Assembly: GCA_003233095.1 (NCBI GenBank)
Contig: QIKT01000198.1
Coordinates: 1 to 41,128, forward strand
Reading direction: 5' to 3'
Length of the DNA: 41,128 nt
DNA from: Oceanospirillales bacterium
Lineage (GTDB): Bacteria > Pseudomonadota > Gammaproteobacteria > Xanthomonadales > SZUA-38
The position numbers and the translations under genes were made by a program. Positions 33,681-40,910 of the stretch are shown here, piece by piece. Below the pieces are notes generated by a model. The model was not told where the DNA came from. It saw only the letters and a program-made list of their open reading frames with translations, and searched no databases. The stretch's first letter is position 1. Each line of letters starts with the position of its first letter.

Positions 33681-34886
33681 ATGAACAAACACCAACAAAA
33701 AACTGCGTTGATTATCGATGATGATGCCGACGCACTGGCGTATAGCGAAGTGGTCTTTGCCGATTGCGGTTATCAGGTCAGCTGCTATAGTCGATTTTCC
33801 GAGTATTCACAGAATTTACAACATTCACCGGATGTGATTGTTCTGGATTTGCTGATGCCGGAGAACGACGGGCTGCAGACGTTGCACAAACTGGCGCGAC
33901 TGAACATCAAGAGTCCGCTGATTATCGTCAGTACCTCCGGGGAACAAGTCCTCAAGGCGGCCGCTTCAGTGGCGCGTTTGCTGGGCTTTGATGTTCTGGG
34001 TACCTTGCGCAAGCCCTATTACAAATCCGATGCCATGGCATTGCTGGCATCCAGTCGCAATGGTCGTCAGGATGGCATGACTGACAAGGACGTGGAACGT
34101 CTGATCAAGAATTCTCGGGTCACCACGCTGTATCAGCCTGTCGTCAACATGCTCAATGGAAAGGTCACACTGCTCAACTCGCAACCGGTGCTGTTGCACC
34201 CGAGGTTGGGTAATGTCAAACCGTCCGAGTTCCTGCCGCTGACGCGAAGTAATCGACTCAGGTCGTTGTTTTCTCAGAAGTATCTGCAAAACGTCCTCAG
34301 TCACTGCCAGGAGTTGCAGGAACACAATTTGAGTACGCCCTGCATGATGAATCTGATGCAGGAAATCATTGCCAACCCAGGTTTTGTCGAACTGCTGACC
34401 GCCGAGTGCACCAGCGCAAAGATTCTGATGAGCCAATTGCTGATCGCCGTGCGAGAAGGCACTTTGTATGGCGACTATCTGAATGTACTGACCAATCTCA
34501 CACGATTGACCTTGCGCGGCTGTCATATCGTACTGGACGGGTTTGAGAACGTGACTCGTCCCCAGGGACAGCTGAATTCAGTACCGTTTTCGCAAATTCA
34601 CCTCTCAGCAAATCTGCTGGATACCTTGCTGACCGATCTGGATCAGCGGTTCATGCTCGATCATCTGGTCAATAGCTGCCGGGACGACGGTATCGAGCTG
34701 ATTGCTGATGGTGTGCACAGCATGGAAGCGGCCGGCATGTTGATGGACCTGGGGATTTACAACATGAGCGGGCCGCTGTTTCGATCATTCAGCGAATTCC
34801 ACAGCCTGTTGTACTGGATGCAGGACATGCCCAAATACATGAAGGAAGCTGGAATCGTTCCGGCCAATCAGATCGCAGTCAATTGA
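33681..34886 (+). CDS. Response regulator with a degenerate EAL domain
   Basis: A 401-residue cytoplasmic protein. Residues ~8-125 are a receiver domain with the acidic pocket IIDDDAD, phospho-acceptor Asp56 (VIVLDLLMPENDG) and Lys111 (LRKP). Residues ~147-395 follow an EAL phosphodiesterase fold, but the catalytic signature has decayed: YQPVV is kept, the EAL motif reads SQPVLL, DDFG reads LDGFE, and the KID lysine region reads QIHLS. It is very unlikely to cleave cyclic di-GMP and may act as a binding or protein-interaction output. ATG 33681 is preferred; a GTG at 33609 and an ATG at 33645 are alternatives. It converges on the Hpt gene with 17 bases between stops. Confidence 0.82.
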   Translation: MNKHQQKTALIIDDDADALAYSEVVFADCGYQVSCYSRFSEYSQNLQHSPDVIVLDLLMPENDGLQTLHKLARLNIKSPLIIVSTSGEQVLKAAASVARLLGFDVLGTLRKPYYKSDAMALLASSRNGRQDGMTDKDVERLIKNSRVTTLYQPVVNMLNGKVTLLNSQPVLLHPRLGNVKPSEFLPLTRSNRLRSLFSQKYLQNVLSHCQELQEHNLSTPCMMNLMQEIIANPGFVELLTAECTSAKILMSQLLIAVREGTLYGDYLNVLTNLTRLTLRGCHIVLDGFENVTRPQGQLNSVPFSQIHLSANLLDTLLTDLDQRFMLDHLVNSCRDDGIELIADGVHSMEAAGMLMDLGIYNMSGPLFRSFSEFHSLLYWMQDMPKYMKEAGIVPANQIAVN

Positions 34887-34903
34887 TCGCACTTGCCAGT
34901 CGA

Positions 34904-35221
34904 TCACTGTTGGCAGAGTCTGTCGAGCTCATTGATCAGCTGGTCGATCAGTCCGCGAATGTTTGTGTCGTCCTGACTGGTTTGTCGAAGTGCCTGATCC
35001 AGCGCTGCGGCCGTTCGCTGCAACCCCTCAAAGCCATATAACCCTGCGGAACCGGCGATCTTGTGCGCCTGGTTTCGCATATCCATCATTGTTTCGAACT
35101 CCGGATTGTCCAGTGACTTTCGCAGCACCTTCAACGCGGAAGATTTGAGTGGCAGGCTGCTTTGGTAGCGATCACGTGCTGCCTTGAGTCGTTCCGACGC
35201 TTCGGGTGACAACTCAGTCAT
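34904..35221 (-). CDS. Histidine phosphotransfer (Hpt) protein
   Basis: A 105-residue helical single-domain phosphotransfer protein. The phospho-accepting His53 is in the canonical QAHKIAGSAGLYGF, followed by helix ALDQALRQ. ATG 35221 (MTELSPEASE) has AGGA seven bases upstream and is preferred to a start at 35248. It is the last gene of the regulator-GTPase-kinase-Hpt operon, 36 bases after the hybrid kinase. It would carry phosphate from the kinase's receiver domain to an output regulator, plausibly the REC-EAL protein encoded next to it or the OmpR-type protein at the head of the operon. Confidence 0.85.
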   Translation of the reverse strand: MTELSPEASERLKAARDRYQSSLPLKSSALKVLRKSLDNPEFETMMDMRNQAHKIAGSAGLYGFEGLQRTAAALDQALRQTSQDDTNIRGLIDQLINELDRLCQQ

Positions 35222-35257
35222 GACAGCATCCTTGTGTAGATGGCGCACTGCTCAGCA

Positions 35258-36760
35258 TCATGACGATTGAGCCAAACGCTTGAGGCTCACGATCAAAAGG
35301 CTCATGTCGAAGGGTTTGGTGAAGAATTCGGAACAGCCATCTTCCTCGGCCTGTTGCCGGTCATTATCCAGACTGGATGCACTCATCACGATGATGGGGA
35401 TCGTACGTTCTGCGCGCCTCAATGTGATGACGACACTGTCACCAGTGGCGTCTGGCAAATTCAGATCGCTGAGGATGATGTCTATCTGTTCGTCTGAAAG
35501 CAGTTTCAGAGCGTCGACCAGACGGCTGGCAGTATGAACCTCAAAGTCATCCATGAGGAAGGTCTTGATGTACTCCAGCACATCGGTGTCATCTTCAATG
35601 ATCAGGACGGAGCGTTGTTTGTTGTTCTGCGCCTTCTTCGGCGCGGCGTCGATACTGGGTTCCGCCTGGACGGTGATTGTGAAAGTTGAGCCCTTGCCGA
35701 CTTCCGAGCTGAGATCAAGTTGCCCACCCAGCAGTTCGGTCAGGTGGCGTGAAATCGACAAACCCAGGCCCAATCCCTGTGAGCCAGCCGAGGCACTGAG
35801 CTGGGTGAATGCGCTAAAAATACTCTGTTGATCAGATTCGGTAATACCAGGTCCAGAATCGATGACCGATACCTGGAGCTTGTTTGATCGCTGCTGCCAG
35901 GCCAATTTGATCCAACCCTTTTCGGTGTAGCGAATCGCATTGGTAATCAGGTTCACGATAATTTGTCTGAGCCTGACATTGTCGGAGTAGACATCTTCGA
36001 AACTGCAACTTTCGCACTGAACTTCGAAATGCAGGTTTTCCTGAGCAGCCAGTGGTTCGAACATCATTCTCAGCGAATCAAACAGATTGGGCAGGTTGAT
36101 CACTTCCCGACGTGCCTCGATGCTGTCAGAGACCACGCGGCCATGCTCAAGTAAATTATCGACCAGCGAGAGCAGGTGATTGGACGATTTCTTGATGCCA
36201 AGCAGGTACGGATCACTTCCGATCTGGTCCTTGTCGAGCAGTTCGGTATAGCCGAGGATAGAGGTCAGAGGTGTTCGGAACTCGTGTGACATGCCGGCAA
36301 TGAATTGGCTTTTCAACTGGCTGGCAGTCTCTGCCAGTTCATGTGCTGAAACCAATTCTGCATTCACTTGACTGAGGCGATATTCCAACAGGCGAATCTC
36401 ATTCTGCTGTGCCTGAATTTCGATCTGTTCAGCATGCTTGCTACTGACATCATAGATCAGGACCCAGGCGCCTCGATCGCTCGGGATCAGTTCCAGGTCG
36501 ATGACGATACCCCGATCGATCTGCAGCATCGGTAACGAAATGGCGTGCTCGGTATGCAGGCCATAAATCACCGGATATTGTGCCAGCAAATCATCGCCGA
36601 CACGGCAGCCCAGGGTATCGGGTCGAGTATTGCCCAGCACCGACAGAACCTGCCAGTCCGGGTTAACTTCAATGCACAAGGGTTGAATGCTCTCGCGAAA
36701 ACGCAGCATGATGGCTCGCCGAACCACGTCAGGGTAGCGCGATGGGTTACGCGGCATCAT
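35258..36760 (-). CDS. Cytosolic hybrid sensor histidine kinase
   Basis: A 500-residue protein with no membrane segment. A PAS-like N-terminal sensor (residues ~20-108) leads through a coiled coil (~110-150) to HisKA with His159 (GMSHEFRTPL). The HATPase domain has the N box around IIVNLITNAIRY (~267-278), DSGPG (301-305) and GLGLGLS (~329-335). A C-terminal receiver has Asp432 (IILSDLNLPDATG) and FTKPFD. The ATG overlaps the small-GTPase stop by 14 bases, so translation is coupled. The absence of a membrane sensor and coupling to a GTPase suggest an intracellular input, possibly the GTPase itself (inference). Confidence 0.9.
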   Translation of the reverse strand: MMPRNPSRYPDVVRRAIMLRFRESIQPLCIEVNPDWQVLSVLGNTRPDTLGCRVGDDLLAQYPVIYGLHTEHAISLPMLQIDRGIVIDLELIPSDRGAWVLIYDVSSKHAEQIEIQAQQNEIRLLEYRLSQVNAELVSAHELAETASQLKSQFIAGMSHEFRTPLTSILGYTELLDKDQIGSDPYLLGIKKSSNHLLSLVDNLLEHGRVVSDSIEARREVINLPNLFDSLRMMFEPLAAQENLHFEVQCESCSFEDVYSDNVRLRQIIVNLITNAIRYTEKGWIKLAWQQRSNKLQVSVIDSGPGITESDQQSIFSAFTQLSASAGSQGLGLGLSISRHLTELLGGQLDLSSEVGKGSTFTITVQAEPSIDAAPKKAQNNKQRSVLIIEDDTDVLEYIKTFLMDDFEVHTASRLVDALKLLSDEQIDIILSDLNLPDATGDSVVITLRRAERTIPIIVMSASSLDNDRQQAEEDGCSEFFTKPFDMSLLIVSLKRLAQSS

Positions 36761-37280
36761 TCAGTTGGTTGACCAGGTGATTGAGGGCTTCGATCAGCTG
36801 CTCTGCAGTGACGGCGCTGGTGAAGAAAATTGGCCAGTCGACCAGTCCTGCGCGAACGATGTCGCTGGAGGAAATCTCGTTTTCTTCATCAAGATCGCTT
36901 TTGTTGATGCACAGACAGAACGGCAAGTCACCAAACTGCATGCGAATCTGATCCTGTAGCGTGAGTGTCGCGGTCAGGGTAGGGCGGCGGGTGGCATCAC
37001 AGACCAGCAGGTAGCCACTCATCCCGGAAATATAGTCAGTCGTCAGTGCATCCAGGTGGTCGACCCCGGCGATATCCCACAGAACGAGTCGCTGTGCGGC
37101 GTCATGCTGGGTTTCGTGTGTTCGGGAGTCCTGACGGTGCCAGTTGATGAGATCCACCGTGGCGCCAAAGGTTGTTTGCAGAGAATCATCGAATTGGCCA
37201 GTGGCCAGACGTCTGGTAATCGAGCTTTTGCCAACGGCAAAATCTCCGAGGACGCAAATCTTGTCGATCGAGATGCGCAT
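36747..37280 (-). CDS. Rab/Roc-like small GTPase
   Basis: A 177-residue Ras-superfamily protein. G1 is GDFAVGKSS (residues 12-20), the G2 threonine is in QTTFGA (~35-40), G3 is WDIAG (68-72), G4 is NKSD (126-129) and G5 is TSA (154-156). The WDxAG form is characteristic of Rab/Roc-like rather than translation-factor GTPases. The residue after G3 is Val73 where Ras/Rab have the catalytic Gln, so intrinsic hydrolysis may be slow and depend on a partner. A longer loop (~47-63) precedes strand beta3. ATG 37280 is preferred over 37328. It lies between the response regulator and the kinase in one operon. Confidence 0.88.
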   Translation of the reverse strand: MRISIDKICVLGDFAVGKSSITRRLATGQFDDSLQTTFGATVDLINWHRQDSRTHETQHDAAQRLVLWDIAGVDHLDALTTDYISGMSGYLLVCDATRRPTLTATLTLQDQIRMQFGDLPFCLCINKSDLDEENEISSSDIVRAGLVDWPIFFTSAVTAEQLIEALNHLVNQLNDAA

Positions 37281-37348
37281 GAGACTCTCAGGCAAGCGAG
37301 TAACGAGGAAAATGGCTTGCACGACCACTGCTGCCGAAGTCTGCTTGA

Positions 37349-38056
37349 TCAGGAAGCAAGTTTATCCTCCTGGTCCAGGCGTTCGAGTCGATAGCCGTGG
37401 TGGTAGATGCTTTTGAGTCGCCATCCATGATCCTTGTTGAACCTGAGTTTTTTGCGCAGGCGAGAGACGTGCGTATCCAGCGTGCGGGTGACCACCGATT
37501 CGTTCAAGCCCCAGATTTCCTTGAGGAGCAGATCGCGGGGCAAGATACGTCCAAGATTCTCAATCAGTCGGGCGGACAGTTCGAACTCACGACGAGTCAG
37601 TTCCACTTCTTCACCGTCCAGACGCAGCGAGTTCATTTGACGATCCAGTTCAATATTTCCCACCACCAGTTTGTTGGCTGTCGGTGCATTGCTGCTGGCG
37701 CGTCGAGCCACGGTATCGATACGGGCTTTGAGTATGGCATTGTCCAGTGGCTTGATGAGGTAATCGTCGGCTCCACTCTCCAGAGCCATCACGATGTCTT
37801 CTGCGGCGTCACGGGCGGTCAGGAAAATCACCGGGGTTTTGGGCCCAAGATTGCTTCGCAACCAGCGCAGCACCGAGTATCCATCCAGATCAGGGACTTC
37901 CCAGTCAAGCAGAATCATGTCGTATTCTTCAGACTTGACAGTTCTGATCAATTCCTGACCATGGGCCAGCCACTTGACGGTATGACCGGCGTCTTCCAGC
38001 CAGACCTTGATCACGTCGGCCTGATCAGGATCATCTTCGAGAAATAGAATTCGCAT
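37349..38056 (-). CDS. OmpR/PhoB-type response regulator
   Basis: A 235-residue two-domain transcription factor. The receiver has FLEDD (residues 5-9), phospho-acceptor Asp51 (MILLDWEVPDLDG) and the lysine in LIKPLD. A winged-helix DNA-binding domain (~135-230) ends in DTHVSRLRKKL and IYHHGYRLE. ATG 38056 has AGGGA ~7 bases upstream and is preferred to 38101. It leads the operon with the GTPase (68-base gap), hybrid kinase and Hpt. Its promoter must lie in the 82 bases before the MITE or inside it. Confidence 0.92.
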   Translation of the reverse strand: MRILFLEDDPDQADVIKVWLEDAGHTVKWLAHGQELIRTVKSEEYDMILLDWEVPDLDGYSVLRWLRSNLGPKTPVIFLTARDAAEDIVMALESGADDYLIKPLDNAILKARIDTVARRASSNAPTANKLVVGNIELDRQMNSLRLDGEEVELTRREFELSARLIENLGRILPRDLLLKEIWGLNESVVTRTLDTHVSRLRKKLRFNKDHGWRLKSIYHHGYRLERLDQEDKLAS

Positions 38057-38137
38057 GCAGTCCCTTTTATTGTCAATGGGTCTCTTGTCGGCGCACGCCA
38101 TGTCGCTCTGAACGCCCCATGGCGACAGCAGATACCG

Positions 38138-38305
38138 CTAGCAGCCTGTCGGGCTTGAGGTGATCTACTGCACAAAACCCGGGTTTGGCCAGATGTCCCG
38201 ATCTTGTTGGTTAAATAGCGGTGCTATTCGCCTCAAAAGATCGAAAAATCTGACTCAAATCGACTTTTCCTCGTGACGACCCGTTAAAGTCCGCTAGGCT
38301 GCTAG
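38138..38305 (-). repeat. MITE-like element, family 1 copy B
   Basis: A 168-bp element with ends CTAGCAGCCTGTCGGGCTTGA and, as reverse complement of the right end, CTAGCAGCCTAGCGGACTTTA: the first 10 bases are identical and most of the rest match. Internally CGATCTT (38199-38205) pairs with AAGATCG (38237-38243) and encloses AATAGC-GGT-GCTATT (38214-38228). It is the inverted homologue of 16655-16813. CTAG flanks both ends and may be target-derived or part of the repeat. It lies 82 bases upstream of the response regulator gene. Confidence 0.8.
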
Positions 38306-38465
38306 TCACTATCCTGGCGTTTCATACTCGGCAGGCCAAGTATTGTGGGTTGATTGAGCCGGGTTAGTCCGGAGTCGAGCACTGACATACGCCGTCACAT
38401 CATAGCCCTGAAAACCGCGATTGTCATGTCTGTGCCTGTACAACCACCTGATGGCAAAAGAATGT

Positions 38466-38515
38466 GAAACTGATCGGGAACTGACCGGGAACTGATCGAC
38501 GATGCGCCGGTCAGA
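38466..38515 (+). promoter_or_regulatory. Sigma-E-type promoter with three 11-bp tandem -35-like repeats
   Basis: GGAACTG (38488-38494), a 16-base spacer and TCAGA (38511-38515) fit the RpoE/AlgU consensus GGAACTT-N16-TCTGA well, implying autoregulation of rpoE. The -35 box is the third of three contiguous 11-base units: GAAACTGATCG, GGAACTGACCG, GGAACTGATCG (38466-38498). Only the third is spaced correctly for the -10 box. It lies ~165 bases upstream of the rpoE ATG. Confidence 0.65.
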
Positions 38516-38680
38516 GAGCGCGTTGCCATCGATCCTTTGAATTGGAAGCGCGGCGGATTCCCCGGTTGTCAGACCCTGAGTGCTACGGATATGATGATCG
38601 GACTCATGGTTGAACTATCGGCAAATGGAACAGTCTAGATTATCTGGATACATTTGCTCCCTGGAAAGGAGCGAGCCCTG

Positions 38681-39274
38681 ATGGGCGAAAAGCAAGTAGA
38701 CGGAGCGCTGGTCAAGCGAGTACAGGAAGGCGACAAACGGGCGTTTGACCTGCTGGTTCTGAAATATCAGCAGAAAATTGCCAACGTCATCTCGCGTTAT
38801 ATCTCCGATCATGCCGAGACGCTAGACGTGGCTCAAGAGGCATTCATCAAGGCATATCGAGCCATCGGTCGGTTTCGTGGCGACAGTGCCTTTTACACTT
38901 GGTTGTATCGAATTGCGATCAACACCGCTAAGAACCATCTGGTTGCTCGTAGCAGGCGACCGCCCGCATCCGATGTTGATGCCAGCGACGCGATGGGCTT
39001 TCAGGCCGATGCTAGAATGCGTGAGGACGATACGCCTGAAAAGGCGCTGGTCCGTGAGCACATCAAGACAGCGATCTATCAGACCATCGATGGACTGCCG
39101 GAAGAACTGAAGACGGCCATTTCACTGCGTGAGTACGATGGTCTGAGTTATGAAGAAATTGCCGATGTCATGGACTGTCCGATTGGCACGGTACGATCAA
39201 GGATTTTCCGGGCTCGTGAAGCGATTGACCGCCAACTCGAACCACTGCTGGACAACACCGAGGCACTACGCTAG
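38681..39274 (+). CDS. rpoE: RNA polymerase extracytoplasmic-stress sigma factor RpoE (AlgU)
   Basis: A 197-residue ECF sigma factor that directs the envelope-stress regulon. Region 2 includes DLLVLKYQQKI and AEAFIKAYR-like QEAFIKAYRAIGRFRG with WLYRIAINTAKN (residues ~20-85). Region 4 has LREYDGLSYEEIADVMDCP and IGTVRSRIFRAR (~145-180). ATG 38681 follows AAGGAG by nine bases and gives the classic length; an upstream non-ATG start at 38654 is rejected. It heads rpoE-rseA-rseB-rseC with 2 bases to rseA. An autoregulatory sigma-E-type promoter lies upstream. Confidence 0.96.
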   Translation: MGEKQVDGALVKRVQEGDKRAFDLLVLKYQQKIANVISRYISDHAETLDVAQEAFIKAYRAIGRFRGDSAFYTWLYRIAINTAKNHLVARSRRPPASDVDASDAMGFQADARMREDDTPEKALVREHIKTAIYQTIDGLPEELKTAISLREYDGLSYEEIADVMDCPIGTVRSRIFRAREAIDRQLEPLLDNTEALR

Positions 39275-39276
39275 CT

Positions 39277-39912
39277 ATGTCTGAGAAACAACTCGAAAAT
39301 CTGTATACCTTCATGGATGATTCACTGGGCAATCATGAATCCCGATTTCTGTTGAAATCGCTGGATCATGACGAGAAATTGAGGGCACGATGGATGCGTT
39401 TCCATTATTGCCGAGTCGTCTTGCAGGAACCCTGTCAGGTCGACGCCAGTCTCTTGTCGCTCCGAATTAGCGAGGCTTTGGTCAATGAGCCATTGCCAGT
39501 CTCCGCAGCCGTTCGACGCGCTCCAGGTTGGCTCAAGCCGGTGGCTGGCATGACCGTTGCCGCCAGCGTGGCGATCGGCGCCTTTGCCTGGTTGCAGCTG
39601 TCTCAGCCTCAAATTCAACCGGGAAACACCATTGCCGATAGCAACACGACGACTATTGGGACGACTGTCCCCACCAAAGGGTTTGAAGTGCCCAATCAGG
39701 CGACTCCGGCTTCATCGGCAGGCTGGGAACCGAAGCTGCAGAATTACCTGATGCGCCACTCGCAAGTCTCCGGCAGCAGTCAGGCACGCAACCTGATGCC
39801 CTATGTCCACATCATCAGCACGCCACCGCCTGAGCCTGCCAGGATAGATCCTTCACAGGTTGACGAACGTCTCCTGCCGATCCAGGCCGAGACCAACAGA
39901 CCCAAGCCATGA
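39277..39912 (+). CDS. rseA: Anti-sigma-E factor RseA (MucA)
   Basis: A 211-residue single-pass inner-membrane anti-sigma factor. The cytoplasmic N-terminal domain (residues ~1-75, MSEKQLENLYTFMDDSLGNHES) would bind RpoE, and one membrane segment lies at ~87-107 (KPVAGMTVAASVAIGAFAWL). The periplasmic tail is Pro/Thr-rich and contains the MucA/RseA-like region MPYVHIIST. Release of RpoE depends on stepwise proteolysis by DegS- and RseP-type proteases, which are not in this window. The stop overlaps the rseB start by 4 bases. Confidence 0.9.
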   Translation: MSEKQLENLYTFMDDSLGNHESRFLLKSLDHDEKLRARWMRFHYCRVVLQEPCQVDASLLSLRISEALVNEPLPVSAAVRRAPGWLKPVAGMTVAASVAIGAFAWLQLSQPQIQPGNTIADSNTTTIGTTVPTKGFEVPNQATPASSAGWEPKLQNYLMRHSQVSGSSQARNLMPYVHIISTPPPEPARIDPSQVDERLLPIQAETNRPKP

Positions 39913-40910
39913 GGCGACTGGCTGCAGTCCTGCTCGGAAATCTTGCGCTGATCGCAGCCACTGTGGCCAGCGCCGCAGATCGGCCGAATGCAGGCGCTTG
40001 GCTGGACGACATGGCCACGGCGATCAACAGCCTGAATTATCATGGCACCGTGGTCGTGGCGCGCGACGCCGACATTGACGTGCTTGAGGTTTTTCACAAG
40101 GCCGATGCGTCCGGACGACGTGAAAAGATCATCACCCTGAATGGCCCGGCTCGCGAGATAATTCGCAATGGCGATTCAGTTCGGGCTATTTTTGCCGACA
40201 AATCGTCGGTCTCGATTGACGCCCGGATTACCGAAGGCCTGTTTCAGGCCGTTCCTTACAATCGAGTGATTGGAACCAATCCGAACTATGGGTTGATCGT
40301 GTTGGGATATGATCGAGTGGCTGGCTTCAAGACTATAGTGATCCAGATCAAGCCCAAGGACGGATTGCGCTTCGGTCAAAAACTCTGGCTGGAGTTGGAA
40401 ACCGCCATGCTGCTCAAGACCGTGACTCTGGATGAAGATGACCATATTCGGGAACAGTTGAGCTTTACCAGTATTGACTTAGGTGGCGCTATTTCGGAGC
40501 GGGATCTGATGCCGACACTCATCTCTCCGAATGCAGTCGAACTGGAAATCAGTACGCTGGATGAGGTTGCGGTCAGACCATCAGACCAGACATACACAGC
40601 AAGTCAGTGGCGCGTCGGAGCGATGCCGGCCGGCTTCTTCATGGTTCGGCAGGTCAACTCCGCTAACCAGGAAAAACGCAATCTGCAGCATCTGGTGCTG
40701 ACCGATGGATTGGCATCGGTCTCGGTCTACATCGAGGCCATTGACTCCGGATCACGACCGATTACCGGCTACAAGGAACTGGGTGGTCTGCACGTTTATG
40801 GCCAGCGCAGAGATGGTTACAACATCACAGCCATTGGCGAAGTGCCAGTGAAGACCTTGCACATGGTCGTGTCCTCGGTCAAGCGCATCAGTGCCGTGGC
40901 CGACCAGTAG
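39909..40910 (+). CDS. rseB: Periplasmic sigma-E regulator RseB (MucB)
   Basis: A 333-residue periplasmic protein with a signal peptide (residues 1-22, TVASA/AD). A large LolA-like N-terminal domain (~30-210, LNYHGTVVVARDADIDVLEVFHK is its opening region) and a smaller C-terminal domain (~225-325) complete the normal RseB layout. RseB binds the RseA periplasmic tail and shields it from proteolysis until off-pathway lipopolysaccharide or lipoprotein releases it. It overlaps rseA by 4 bases and is 14 bases from rseC. Confidence 0.92.
   Translation: MRRLAAVLLGNLALIAATVASAADRPNAGAWLDDMATAINSLNYHGTVVVARDADIDVLEVFHKADASGRREKIITLNGPAREIIRNGDSVRAIFADKSSVSIDARITEGLFQAVPYNRVIGTNPNYGLIVLGYDRVAGFKTIVIQIKPKDGLRFGQKLWLELETAMLLKTVTLDEDDHIREQLSFTSIDLGGAISERDLMPTLISPNAVELEISTLDEVAVRPSDQTYTASQWRVGAMPAGFFMVRQVNSANQEKRNLQHLVLTDGLASVSVYIEAIDSGSRPITGYKELGGLHVYGQRRDGYNITAIGEVPVKTLHMVVSSVKRISAVADQ

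What the first reader, a model, noticed from the sequence alone, without database searches (positions are those of the whole stretch)
33681..38056. Phosphorelay operon with an embedded Rab-like GTPase, facing a degenerate-EAL response regulator
Seen: a minus-strand operon OmpR-type regulator, small GTPase (WDIAG/NKSD), cytosolic hybrid kinase (14-base overlap with the GTPase) and Hpt. The convergent next gene is a REC protein with an EAL fold lacking catalytic residues. Known: hybrid kinase receiver to Hpt to regulator is a standard phosphorelay; Rab/Roc-like GTPases are rare in bacteria and are sometimes linked to polarity or motility (MglA). Inference: GTP loading and phosphotransfer are wired together, perhaps with the GTPase gating the kinase and the EAL protein acting as a non-enzymatic output or cyclic di-GMP reader. 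I do not know a named system with this set.
Basis: partly seen in the sequence, partly recalled or inferred. Interest (0 to 1): 0.72.

Follow-up and report, generated by a model that had tools for sequence, protein, structure and literature searches.

The report
Stripped-down Ras-like GTPase phosphorelay operon
A gammaproteobacterium carries a Ras-like molecular switch in one operon with a histidine-kinase relay; the pairing belongs to an uncharacterised but already described bacterial GTPase system, of which this copy has lost the membrane part that probably controls the switch.

Summary
In detail: regulator, Ras-like GTPase, hybrid kinase and Hpt form one minus-strand operon facing a REC-EAL gene whose EAL domain has lost 6 of 8 catalytic residues. 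The GTPase-kinase pairing is real: the kinase lies directly downstream in 27/30 loci of the same order and 58/68 named loci from several phyla. But it is not unnamed. It descends from the Group 1 'Rup' system described computationally in 2014 (PMC4316618): coiled-coil protein, OmpA-like envelope protein, Rup GTPase, output module. The window holds a derived paralogue ('type B', seen only in this Lysobacterales family, support 100/99) that lost the coiled-coil and OmpA-like genes and the near-invariant Gln of the kinase's signalling helix. Sister GTPases also lost DxxG; the window's is intact. New here: the OmpA-like partner's unassigned domain is predicted to be Roadblock/MglB-like, a candidate built-in GTPase regulator that type B has discarded. 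Best model: the GTPase is a nucleotide-sensitive subunit on the kinase's PAS/helix region, gating phosphoflow to an OmpR regulator and a dead EAL protein. Interaction is inferred, not shown.

The parts
33681..34886 (+). REC-EAL response regulator, RocR/PvrR-like, catalytically dead EAL
   Evidence: Pfam REC and EAL; best PDB match RocR 3sy8 E 2.7e-20; catalytic positions lost
34904..35248 (-). Hpt phosphotransfer protein (QAHKIAGSAG)
   Evidence: Pfam Hpt 8.7e-9; same place in the three sister loci
35258..36760 (-). PAS-like / HisKA / HATPase / REC hybrid histidine kinase, output module of the Rup system
   Evidence: Pfam; AF2 N-terminus pLDDT 91, PAS-like; kinase clade with type B sisters
36398..36415 (-). 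Kinase residues 116-121, QAQQNE: signalling-helix motif, elsewhere QQxx[NH][ED]; the near-invariant second Gln is Ala117 here
   Evidence: Gln in 95 of 100 kinases; 4 of the 5 exceptions are the four type B loci
36747..36760 (-). 14-base overlap of GTPase stop and kinase start
   Evidence: sequence; overlaps of 4-8 bases in relatives
36747..37280 (-). Rup-type Ras-like small GTPase, 177 aa from ATG (ORF open to GTG 37328)
   Evidence: Pfam Ras/Roc, best PDB match Rab27A 9.3e-14, alignment
37224..37247 (-). G1 P-loop GDFAVGKS
   Evidence: sequence; alignment
37065..37079 (-). G3 WDIAG, followed by Val (no catalytic Gln)
   Evidence: 0 of 113 relatives have Gln here
36894..36905 (-). G4 NKSD
37349..38056 (-). 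OmpR/PhoB-family response regulator
   Evidence: Pfam REC + Trans_reg_C; type B clade

Best explanation
This is a derived Group 1 Rup signalling operon. A cytosolic PAS-like hybrid kinase autophosphorylates and passes phosphate through its own receiver and the Hpt to two receivers, an OmpR-type DNA-binding regulator and a non-enzymatic REC-EAL protein. The co-translated Ras-like GTPase binds the kinase's N-terminal PAS-like/signalling-helix region and its nucleotide state sets kinase activity. In the ancestral system the switch is controlled from the envelope by an OmpA-like protein whose cytosolic part is predicted to be a Roadblock/MglB-like regulator, with a coiled-coil partner. In this paralogue that arm is gone, and the kinase helix glutamine that may complete the GTPase site is changed, so the GTPase probably cycles slowly or works as a stably bound kinase subunit. 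Shown by sequence: gene order, families, descent, losses, dead EAL. Inferred: binding, direction of control, phosphate route, function of the Roadblock domain.
For: Families and residues. GTPase-kinase adjacency 27/30 and 58/68; coiled-coil and OmpA-like genes upstream in 25/31 and 56-59/65. Published Group 1 Rup neighbourhood and missing G3 Gln match; 0/113 Gln here. Type B clade 100/99, sister to the same family's complete cassette at 95/95. Same convergent REC-EAL in all four type B loci. Roadblock: AF2 topology a-b-b-a-b-b-b-a, top Foldseek hits MglB, Ragulator, TRAPP, Mon1-Ccz1, profile match E 8e-4 against controls of 0.067 or worse. OmpA-like domain absent from the window's genome while about E 1e-93 in three sisters. 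Near-invariant kinase Gln lost in all type B and one other locus. Precedent for GTPase + Roadblock + kinase in one system: actinobacterial conservons.
Against: No interaction or biochemistry on any Rup was found. Three other loci (L064, L081, L091) also lack detectable coiled-coil/OmpA-like genes nearby but keep the Gln, so gene loss and Gln loss are not strictly tied. The four type B loci are one lineage, so the Gln change is one event, not four. The window kinase keeps Gln116 and has Gln118/119, so a shifted Gln could still serve. The Roadblock call rests on a predicted structure plus a modest profile match. The genome is 92.8% complete.
Confidence: 0.6

Rival explanations
1. The type B GTPase is no longer a switch: it has become a structural subunit or chaperone of the kinase, and signal enters only through the PAS-like domain.
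For: Three of four type B GTPases lack the G2 Thr region and DxxG (WDILC/WDVLC); long branches of type B GTPases; loss of the predicted regulator and of the kinase Gln.
Against: The window's own GTPase keeps G1, the TTxG threonines, DxxG, NKSD and TSA, so in this organism binding and cycling remain plausible.
Confidence: 0.25
2. The EAL protein is a c-di-GMP receptor (FimX-like) and the operon joins GTP, phosphate and c-di-GMP signals.
For: REC plus degenerate EAL; in a distant family of the order a FimX-like REC-EAL gene follows the kinase (L060, L063; FimX best PDB match of the L060 protein, 4e-21); the genome has 19 GGDEF domains.
Against: EALxR Arg, Gln and Lys positions are lost in the window protein, while the FimX-like and sister proteins keep the Arg and Gln.
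Confidence: 0.2
3. The missing envelope arm is supplied from elsewhere, by the separate Roadblock/MglA-like/BLUF cluster on contig C30 of the same genome.
For: The window genome has a Pfam Roadblock match there that the three sister genomes lack.
Against: That cluster has its own GTPase and two Roadblock-like genes, and looks self-contained.
Confidence: 0.1
4. Ordinary phosphorelay with an accidental passenger GTPase gene.
For: No experimental link between the proteins; a 14-base overlap alone is common in operons.
Against: Adjacency conserved across phyla and in two paralogous cassettes per genome.
Confidence: 0.03

Closest known systems
Group 1 Rup GTPase systems (Wuichet and Sogaard-Andersen 2014, PMC4316618)
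   Same: Ras-like GTPase without the G3 Gln, directly upstream of a signalling output protein (here a hybrid kinase); descends from within this group
   Different: No coiled-coil gene, no OmpA-like gene, near-invariant kinase Gln replaced by Ala, convergent dead REC-EAL; paralogue seen only in one Lysobacterales family among the genomes held
Actinobacterial conservons / AGPS (CvnA-D; PMC13343842)
   Same: Operon joining a histidine kinase to a small Ras-like GTPase
   Different: Conservons have an MglB-type Roadblock gene, a CvnC gene and an MglA-family GTPase, and no response regulator; the window has a Rup, a full phosphorelay and no Roadblock gene
MglA/MglB/RomR polarity module of Myxococcus
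   Same: Small GTPase tied to receiver-domain proteins
   Different: MglA lacks the G3 Asp and is coupled to MglB; the window GTPase has WDIAG and no MglB
RocR / PvrR REC-EAL regulators of Pseudomonas
   Same: REC-EAL architecture; RocR is the best solved match
   Different: RocR and PvrR are phosphodiesterases (named so in NCBIfam/PDB); the window EAL has lost 6 of 8 catalytic residues

Membership tests
Group 1 Rup system | Single-domain Ras-like GTPase under 240 aa with G1-G5 motifs | tested here: met
   177 aa; GDFAVGKS, TT, WDIAG, NKSD, TSA
Group 1 Rup system | G3 catalytic Gln absent | tested here: met
   Val at that position; 0 of 113 relatives have Gln
Group 1 Rup system | Adjacent output module: histidine kinase or GGDEF/EAL protein | tested here: met
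   Hybrid kinase overlapping by 14 bases
Group 1 Rup system | Coiled-coil gene in the neighbourhood | tested here: not met
   Absent between regulator and GTPase; present upstream in 25/31 and 56/65 relatives
Group 1 Rup system | OmpA-like gene with conserved N-terminal domain | tested here: not met
   Absent from the locus and the whole held genome, about E 1e-93 in three sisters
Group 1 Rup system | Invariant Gln in the N-terminal region of the output module | tested here: not met
   Ala117 at the aligned position (Gln in 95/100); neighbouring Gln116, 118, 119 remain. The paper's logo was not readable, so the identity of its Gln is from my alignment
Group 1 Rup system | Descent from within the group | tested here: met
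   Window + type B sister to the family's complete cassettes, 95/95
MglA family | G3 without Asp, coupled MglB | tested here: not met
   WDIAG has the Asp; no Roadblock gene in the window locus
Conservon (AGPS) | Roadblock (CvnB) and CvnC genes beside kinase and GTPase | tested here: not met
   Neither is in the operon
His-Asp-His-Asp phosphorelay | HisKA His, receiver Asp, Hpt His, output receiver Asp | tested here: met
   SHEFRTP, LSDLNLP, QAHKIAGSAG, LLDWEVP and VLDLLMP present
His-Asp-His-Asp phosphorelay | Phosphate actually flows along this route | not testable with these tools
   needs in vitro phosphotransfer
RocR/PvrR c-di-GMP phosphodiesterase | Eight EAL catalytic residues | tested here: not met
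   6 of 8 replaced
Roadblock/LC7 (for the OmpA-like partner in relatives, not in the window) | a-b-b-a-b-b-b-a fold and sequence profile match | tested here: met
   AF2 + Foldseek to MglB, hhalign E 8e-4; no Pfam match over cut-off, so distant

The most novel reading that the evidence does not exclude
A bacterial Ras-like switch system with a built-in Roadblock (MglB/Ragulator-like) regulator anchored to peptidoglycan was duplicated; one copy shed its regulator and the in-trans catalytic residue and turned the G protein into a subunit of a hybrid kinase with a dead-EAL second output: an evolutionary series from regulated GTPase to pseudo-GTPase kinase subunit caught in one family.
Probability: 0.3. 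Interest if true: 0.68.

Novelty: new variant of a known kind. Interest (0 to 1): 0.52.

Why it matters
Group 1 Rup GTPases are the prokaryotic proteins reported as very similar to the eukaryotic Rab/Ran/Ras/Rho group (PMC4316618), yet none has been characterised and their GAP was called unknown. The predicted Roadblock domain in the OmpA-like partner gives a concrete candidate GAP/GEF and makes Rup systems parallel to MglA-MglB and Rag-Ragulator. The window's type B operon, which lost that partner and the kinase Gln, while its sisters also lost GTPase motifs, is a natural deletion experiment on what the switch needs.

Tried and rejected
Genome scan with the single window GTPase found nothing; an alignment worked. 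The first search for the OmpA-like domain in the own genome had no positive control; repeated with sisters as control. The first hhalign run used a wrong option that forced global alignment and is discarded; the local run counts. Greedy ORF calling hid GTPases under long spurious ORFs; replaced by domain mapping on stop-to-stop frames. Considered that the window GTPase came from the complete cassette and moved into a type B operon, because its raw identity is higher to type A: rejected, since kinase, regulator, REC-EAL and the concatenated tree all place it in type B; the sister type B GTPases are simply fast-evolving. MglA-type polarity role rejected on motif grounds. A profile of the OmpA-like domain against PDB sequences gave nothing.

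Full report
WHAT IS THERE. The five genes are as described: OmpR-type regulator (38056-37349, -), Ras-like GTPase (37280 or 37328 to 36747, -), hybrid kinase (36760-35258, -, overlapping the GTPase by 14 bases), Hpt (35248-34904, -), and a convergent REC-EAL gene (33681-34886, +). Pfam assigns Ras (1.1e-20) and Roc (1.9e-18), HisKA/HATPase/REC, Hpt, REC+winged helix, REC+EAL. The nearest solved structures to the GTPase are Rab27A and Rab23. The phosphorelay residues are all present. The EAL domain is most like RocR, but Glu175, Glu265, Asp296, Lys316, Glu352 and Gln372 are replaced by N, A, G, H, D, S; a REC-EAL gene beside the complete cassette in a sister genome keeps them all, which shows that the alignment is sound.

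THE PAIRING IS CONSERVED. In 100 genomes of relatives and 80 named loci from a public scan I mapped domains on stop-to-stop frames. Where enough sequence is available, a histidine kinase lies directly downstream of the GTPase in 27/30 and 58/68 loci. The rest include other outputs: GAF-HD in an Anaerolineae locus, GGDEF in a Desulfovibrio locus. The named loci are mostly Gammaproteobacteria (Lysobacterales, Woeseiaceae, Thiotrichaceae, Methylococcales, Chromatiales), with Acidobacteria and Chloroflexota. The window is a Lysobacterales-type MAG, judged by the names of contigs that match its same-family and same-order genomes by length and hit.

IT HAS A NAME. Wuichet and Sogaard-Andersen (PMC4316618) described Group 1 Rup GTPases: no Gln in G3, and a neighbourhood of a coiled-coil protein, a protein with an N-terminal domain of unknown function, a transmembrane helix and a C-terminal OmpA domain, and an output protein that is a kinase or a GGDEF/EAL protein with an invariant Gln in its N-terminus. 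They reported no experimental work on any Rup and no coupled MglB, and speculated that an unknown GAP supplies the Gln. Later papers in the held library add no characterisation of a Rup that I could find; most subscription journals are not held. My relatives reproduce every element: 0/113 GTPases have the G3 Gln; coiled-coil and OmpA-like genes lie upstream in 25/31 and 56-59/65; the kinases share QQxx[NH][ED] at the start of the signalling helix, the second Gln being present in 95 of 100. That this is the paper's Gln is my inference, since the figure could not be read.

THE WINDOW IS A DERIVED PARALOGUE. All three other held genomes of the family carry two cassettes: type A (with the coiled-coil and OmpA-like genes) and type B (regulator-GTPase-kinase-Hpt with a convergent REC-EAL and neither of those genes). 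The window has type B only. A tree of concatenated GTPase, kinase and regulator puts the window with the three type B loci at 100/99 and this clade beside the family's type A at 95/95. The OmpA-like domain is found in the three sisters at about E 1e-93 and not at all in the window's genome (92.8% complete). The near-invariant kinase Gln is Arg in the three sisters and Ala (QAQQNE, residues 116-121) in the window: four of the five exceptions among 100 kinases, but probably one evolutionary event. The sister type B GTPases have also lost the switch-I threonine region and DxxG (WDILC or WDVLC), while the window's GTPase keeps all motifs. So within one clade there are stages from an intact GTPase to a likely pseudo-GTPase.

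A CANDIDATE REGULATOR, AND ITS LOSS HERE. The N-terminal domain of the OmpA-like protein matches nothing over cut-off in Pfam. AlphaFold on 45 sequences gives helices followed by a-b-b-a-b-b-b-a (pLDDT 84). Foldseek's best PDB matches are MglB in complex with MglA, Ragulator, TRAPP and Mon1-Ccz1 (E from 2.6e-4, probability 1.00), all regulators or partners of small GTPases. A profile comparison with Gammaproteobacterial Roadblock proteins gives E 8e-4 over 79 columns, against 0.067 or worse for eight unrelated control profiles. I take this as good evidence of a Roadblock/LC7-like domain; whether it is a GAP, a GEF or a scaffold is open. It would supply the MglB counterpart that was reported missing for Rup. 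In type B it has been discarded.

HOW IT MOST LIKELY WORKS. The kinase N-terminus is PAS-like and runs into one long helix to HisKA. In type A, envelope state sensed through the OmpA domain would set the GTPase via the Roadblock domain, and the GTPase would act on the PAS/helix region of the kinase, where the conserved Gln sits. In the window the GTPase remains co-translated with the kinase, but its upstream control is gone; it probably works as a slowly cycling or constitutively bound subunit. Phosphate would go to the kinase receiver, to Hpt, and then to the OmpR regulator (transcription) and the REC-EAL protein (protein-protein output). The genome has 19 GGDEF domains, so c-di-GMP is available, but the window EAL has also lost the EALxR Arg and the Gln that FimX-like and sister proteins keep, which speaks against a reader role. 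Every step of this paragraph beyond the folds is inference.

VERDICT. Observation confirmed; interpretation partly supported; a new variant of a known but uncharacterised kind. By the features listed in 2014 it fails three of the Group 1 Rup tests (coiled-coil gene, OmpA-like gene, Gln), so it is filed as Rup-derived, not as a full member. The most interesting part lies one gene outside the window: the Roadblock-like domain of the partner that this operon has lost.

Noticed in passing
L068:5112-5891 (and 44 relatives, e.g. L071:1717-2499): The unassigned N-terminal domain of the OmpA-like partner of Group 1 Rup GTPases is predicted to be a Roadblock/LC7 (MglB-like) domain, not detected by Pfam.
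   Followed up: yes
L067:4016-6192 (contig C30 of the window's genome): A second small-GTPase cluster: Roadblock-like protein, BLUF-type photoreceptor-like protein, MglA-like GTPase (YGVPGQERF), second Roadblock protein (Pfam Robl_LC7 3.1e-6). A light-sensor-like gene inside a GTPase/Roadblock cluster; the three sister genomes have no Pfam Roadblock match.
   Followed up: partly
window 38654-40910: An rpoE-like sigma factor gene followed by what look like rseA- and rseB-like genes runs divergently from the regulator of this operon, sharing the 38102-38653 intergenic region; not so in the sister type B loci, where a lipase-like (LCAT) gene lies upstream.
   Followed up: no
L060:6932-8887 and L063: In a distant family of the same order a FimX-like protein (REC plus degenerate EAL, best PDB match FimX 4e-21) follows the Rup kinase: a second, separate pairing of a Rup cassette with a non-catalytic EAL protein.
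   Followed up: partly
L043:524-3324, also L045, L116, L128: A Lysobacterales subgroup of Rup GTPases sits between a penicillin-binding transpeptidase-like gene and a 498-aa protein with no Pfam match, with no kinase nearby.
   Followed up: no
L064:4261-6747: A locus with regulator, 148-aa orphan, GTPase lacking a recognisable P-loop, and kinase: perhaps another independently decaying Rup cassette.
   Followed up: no
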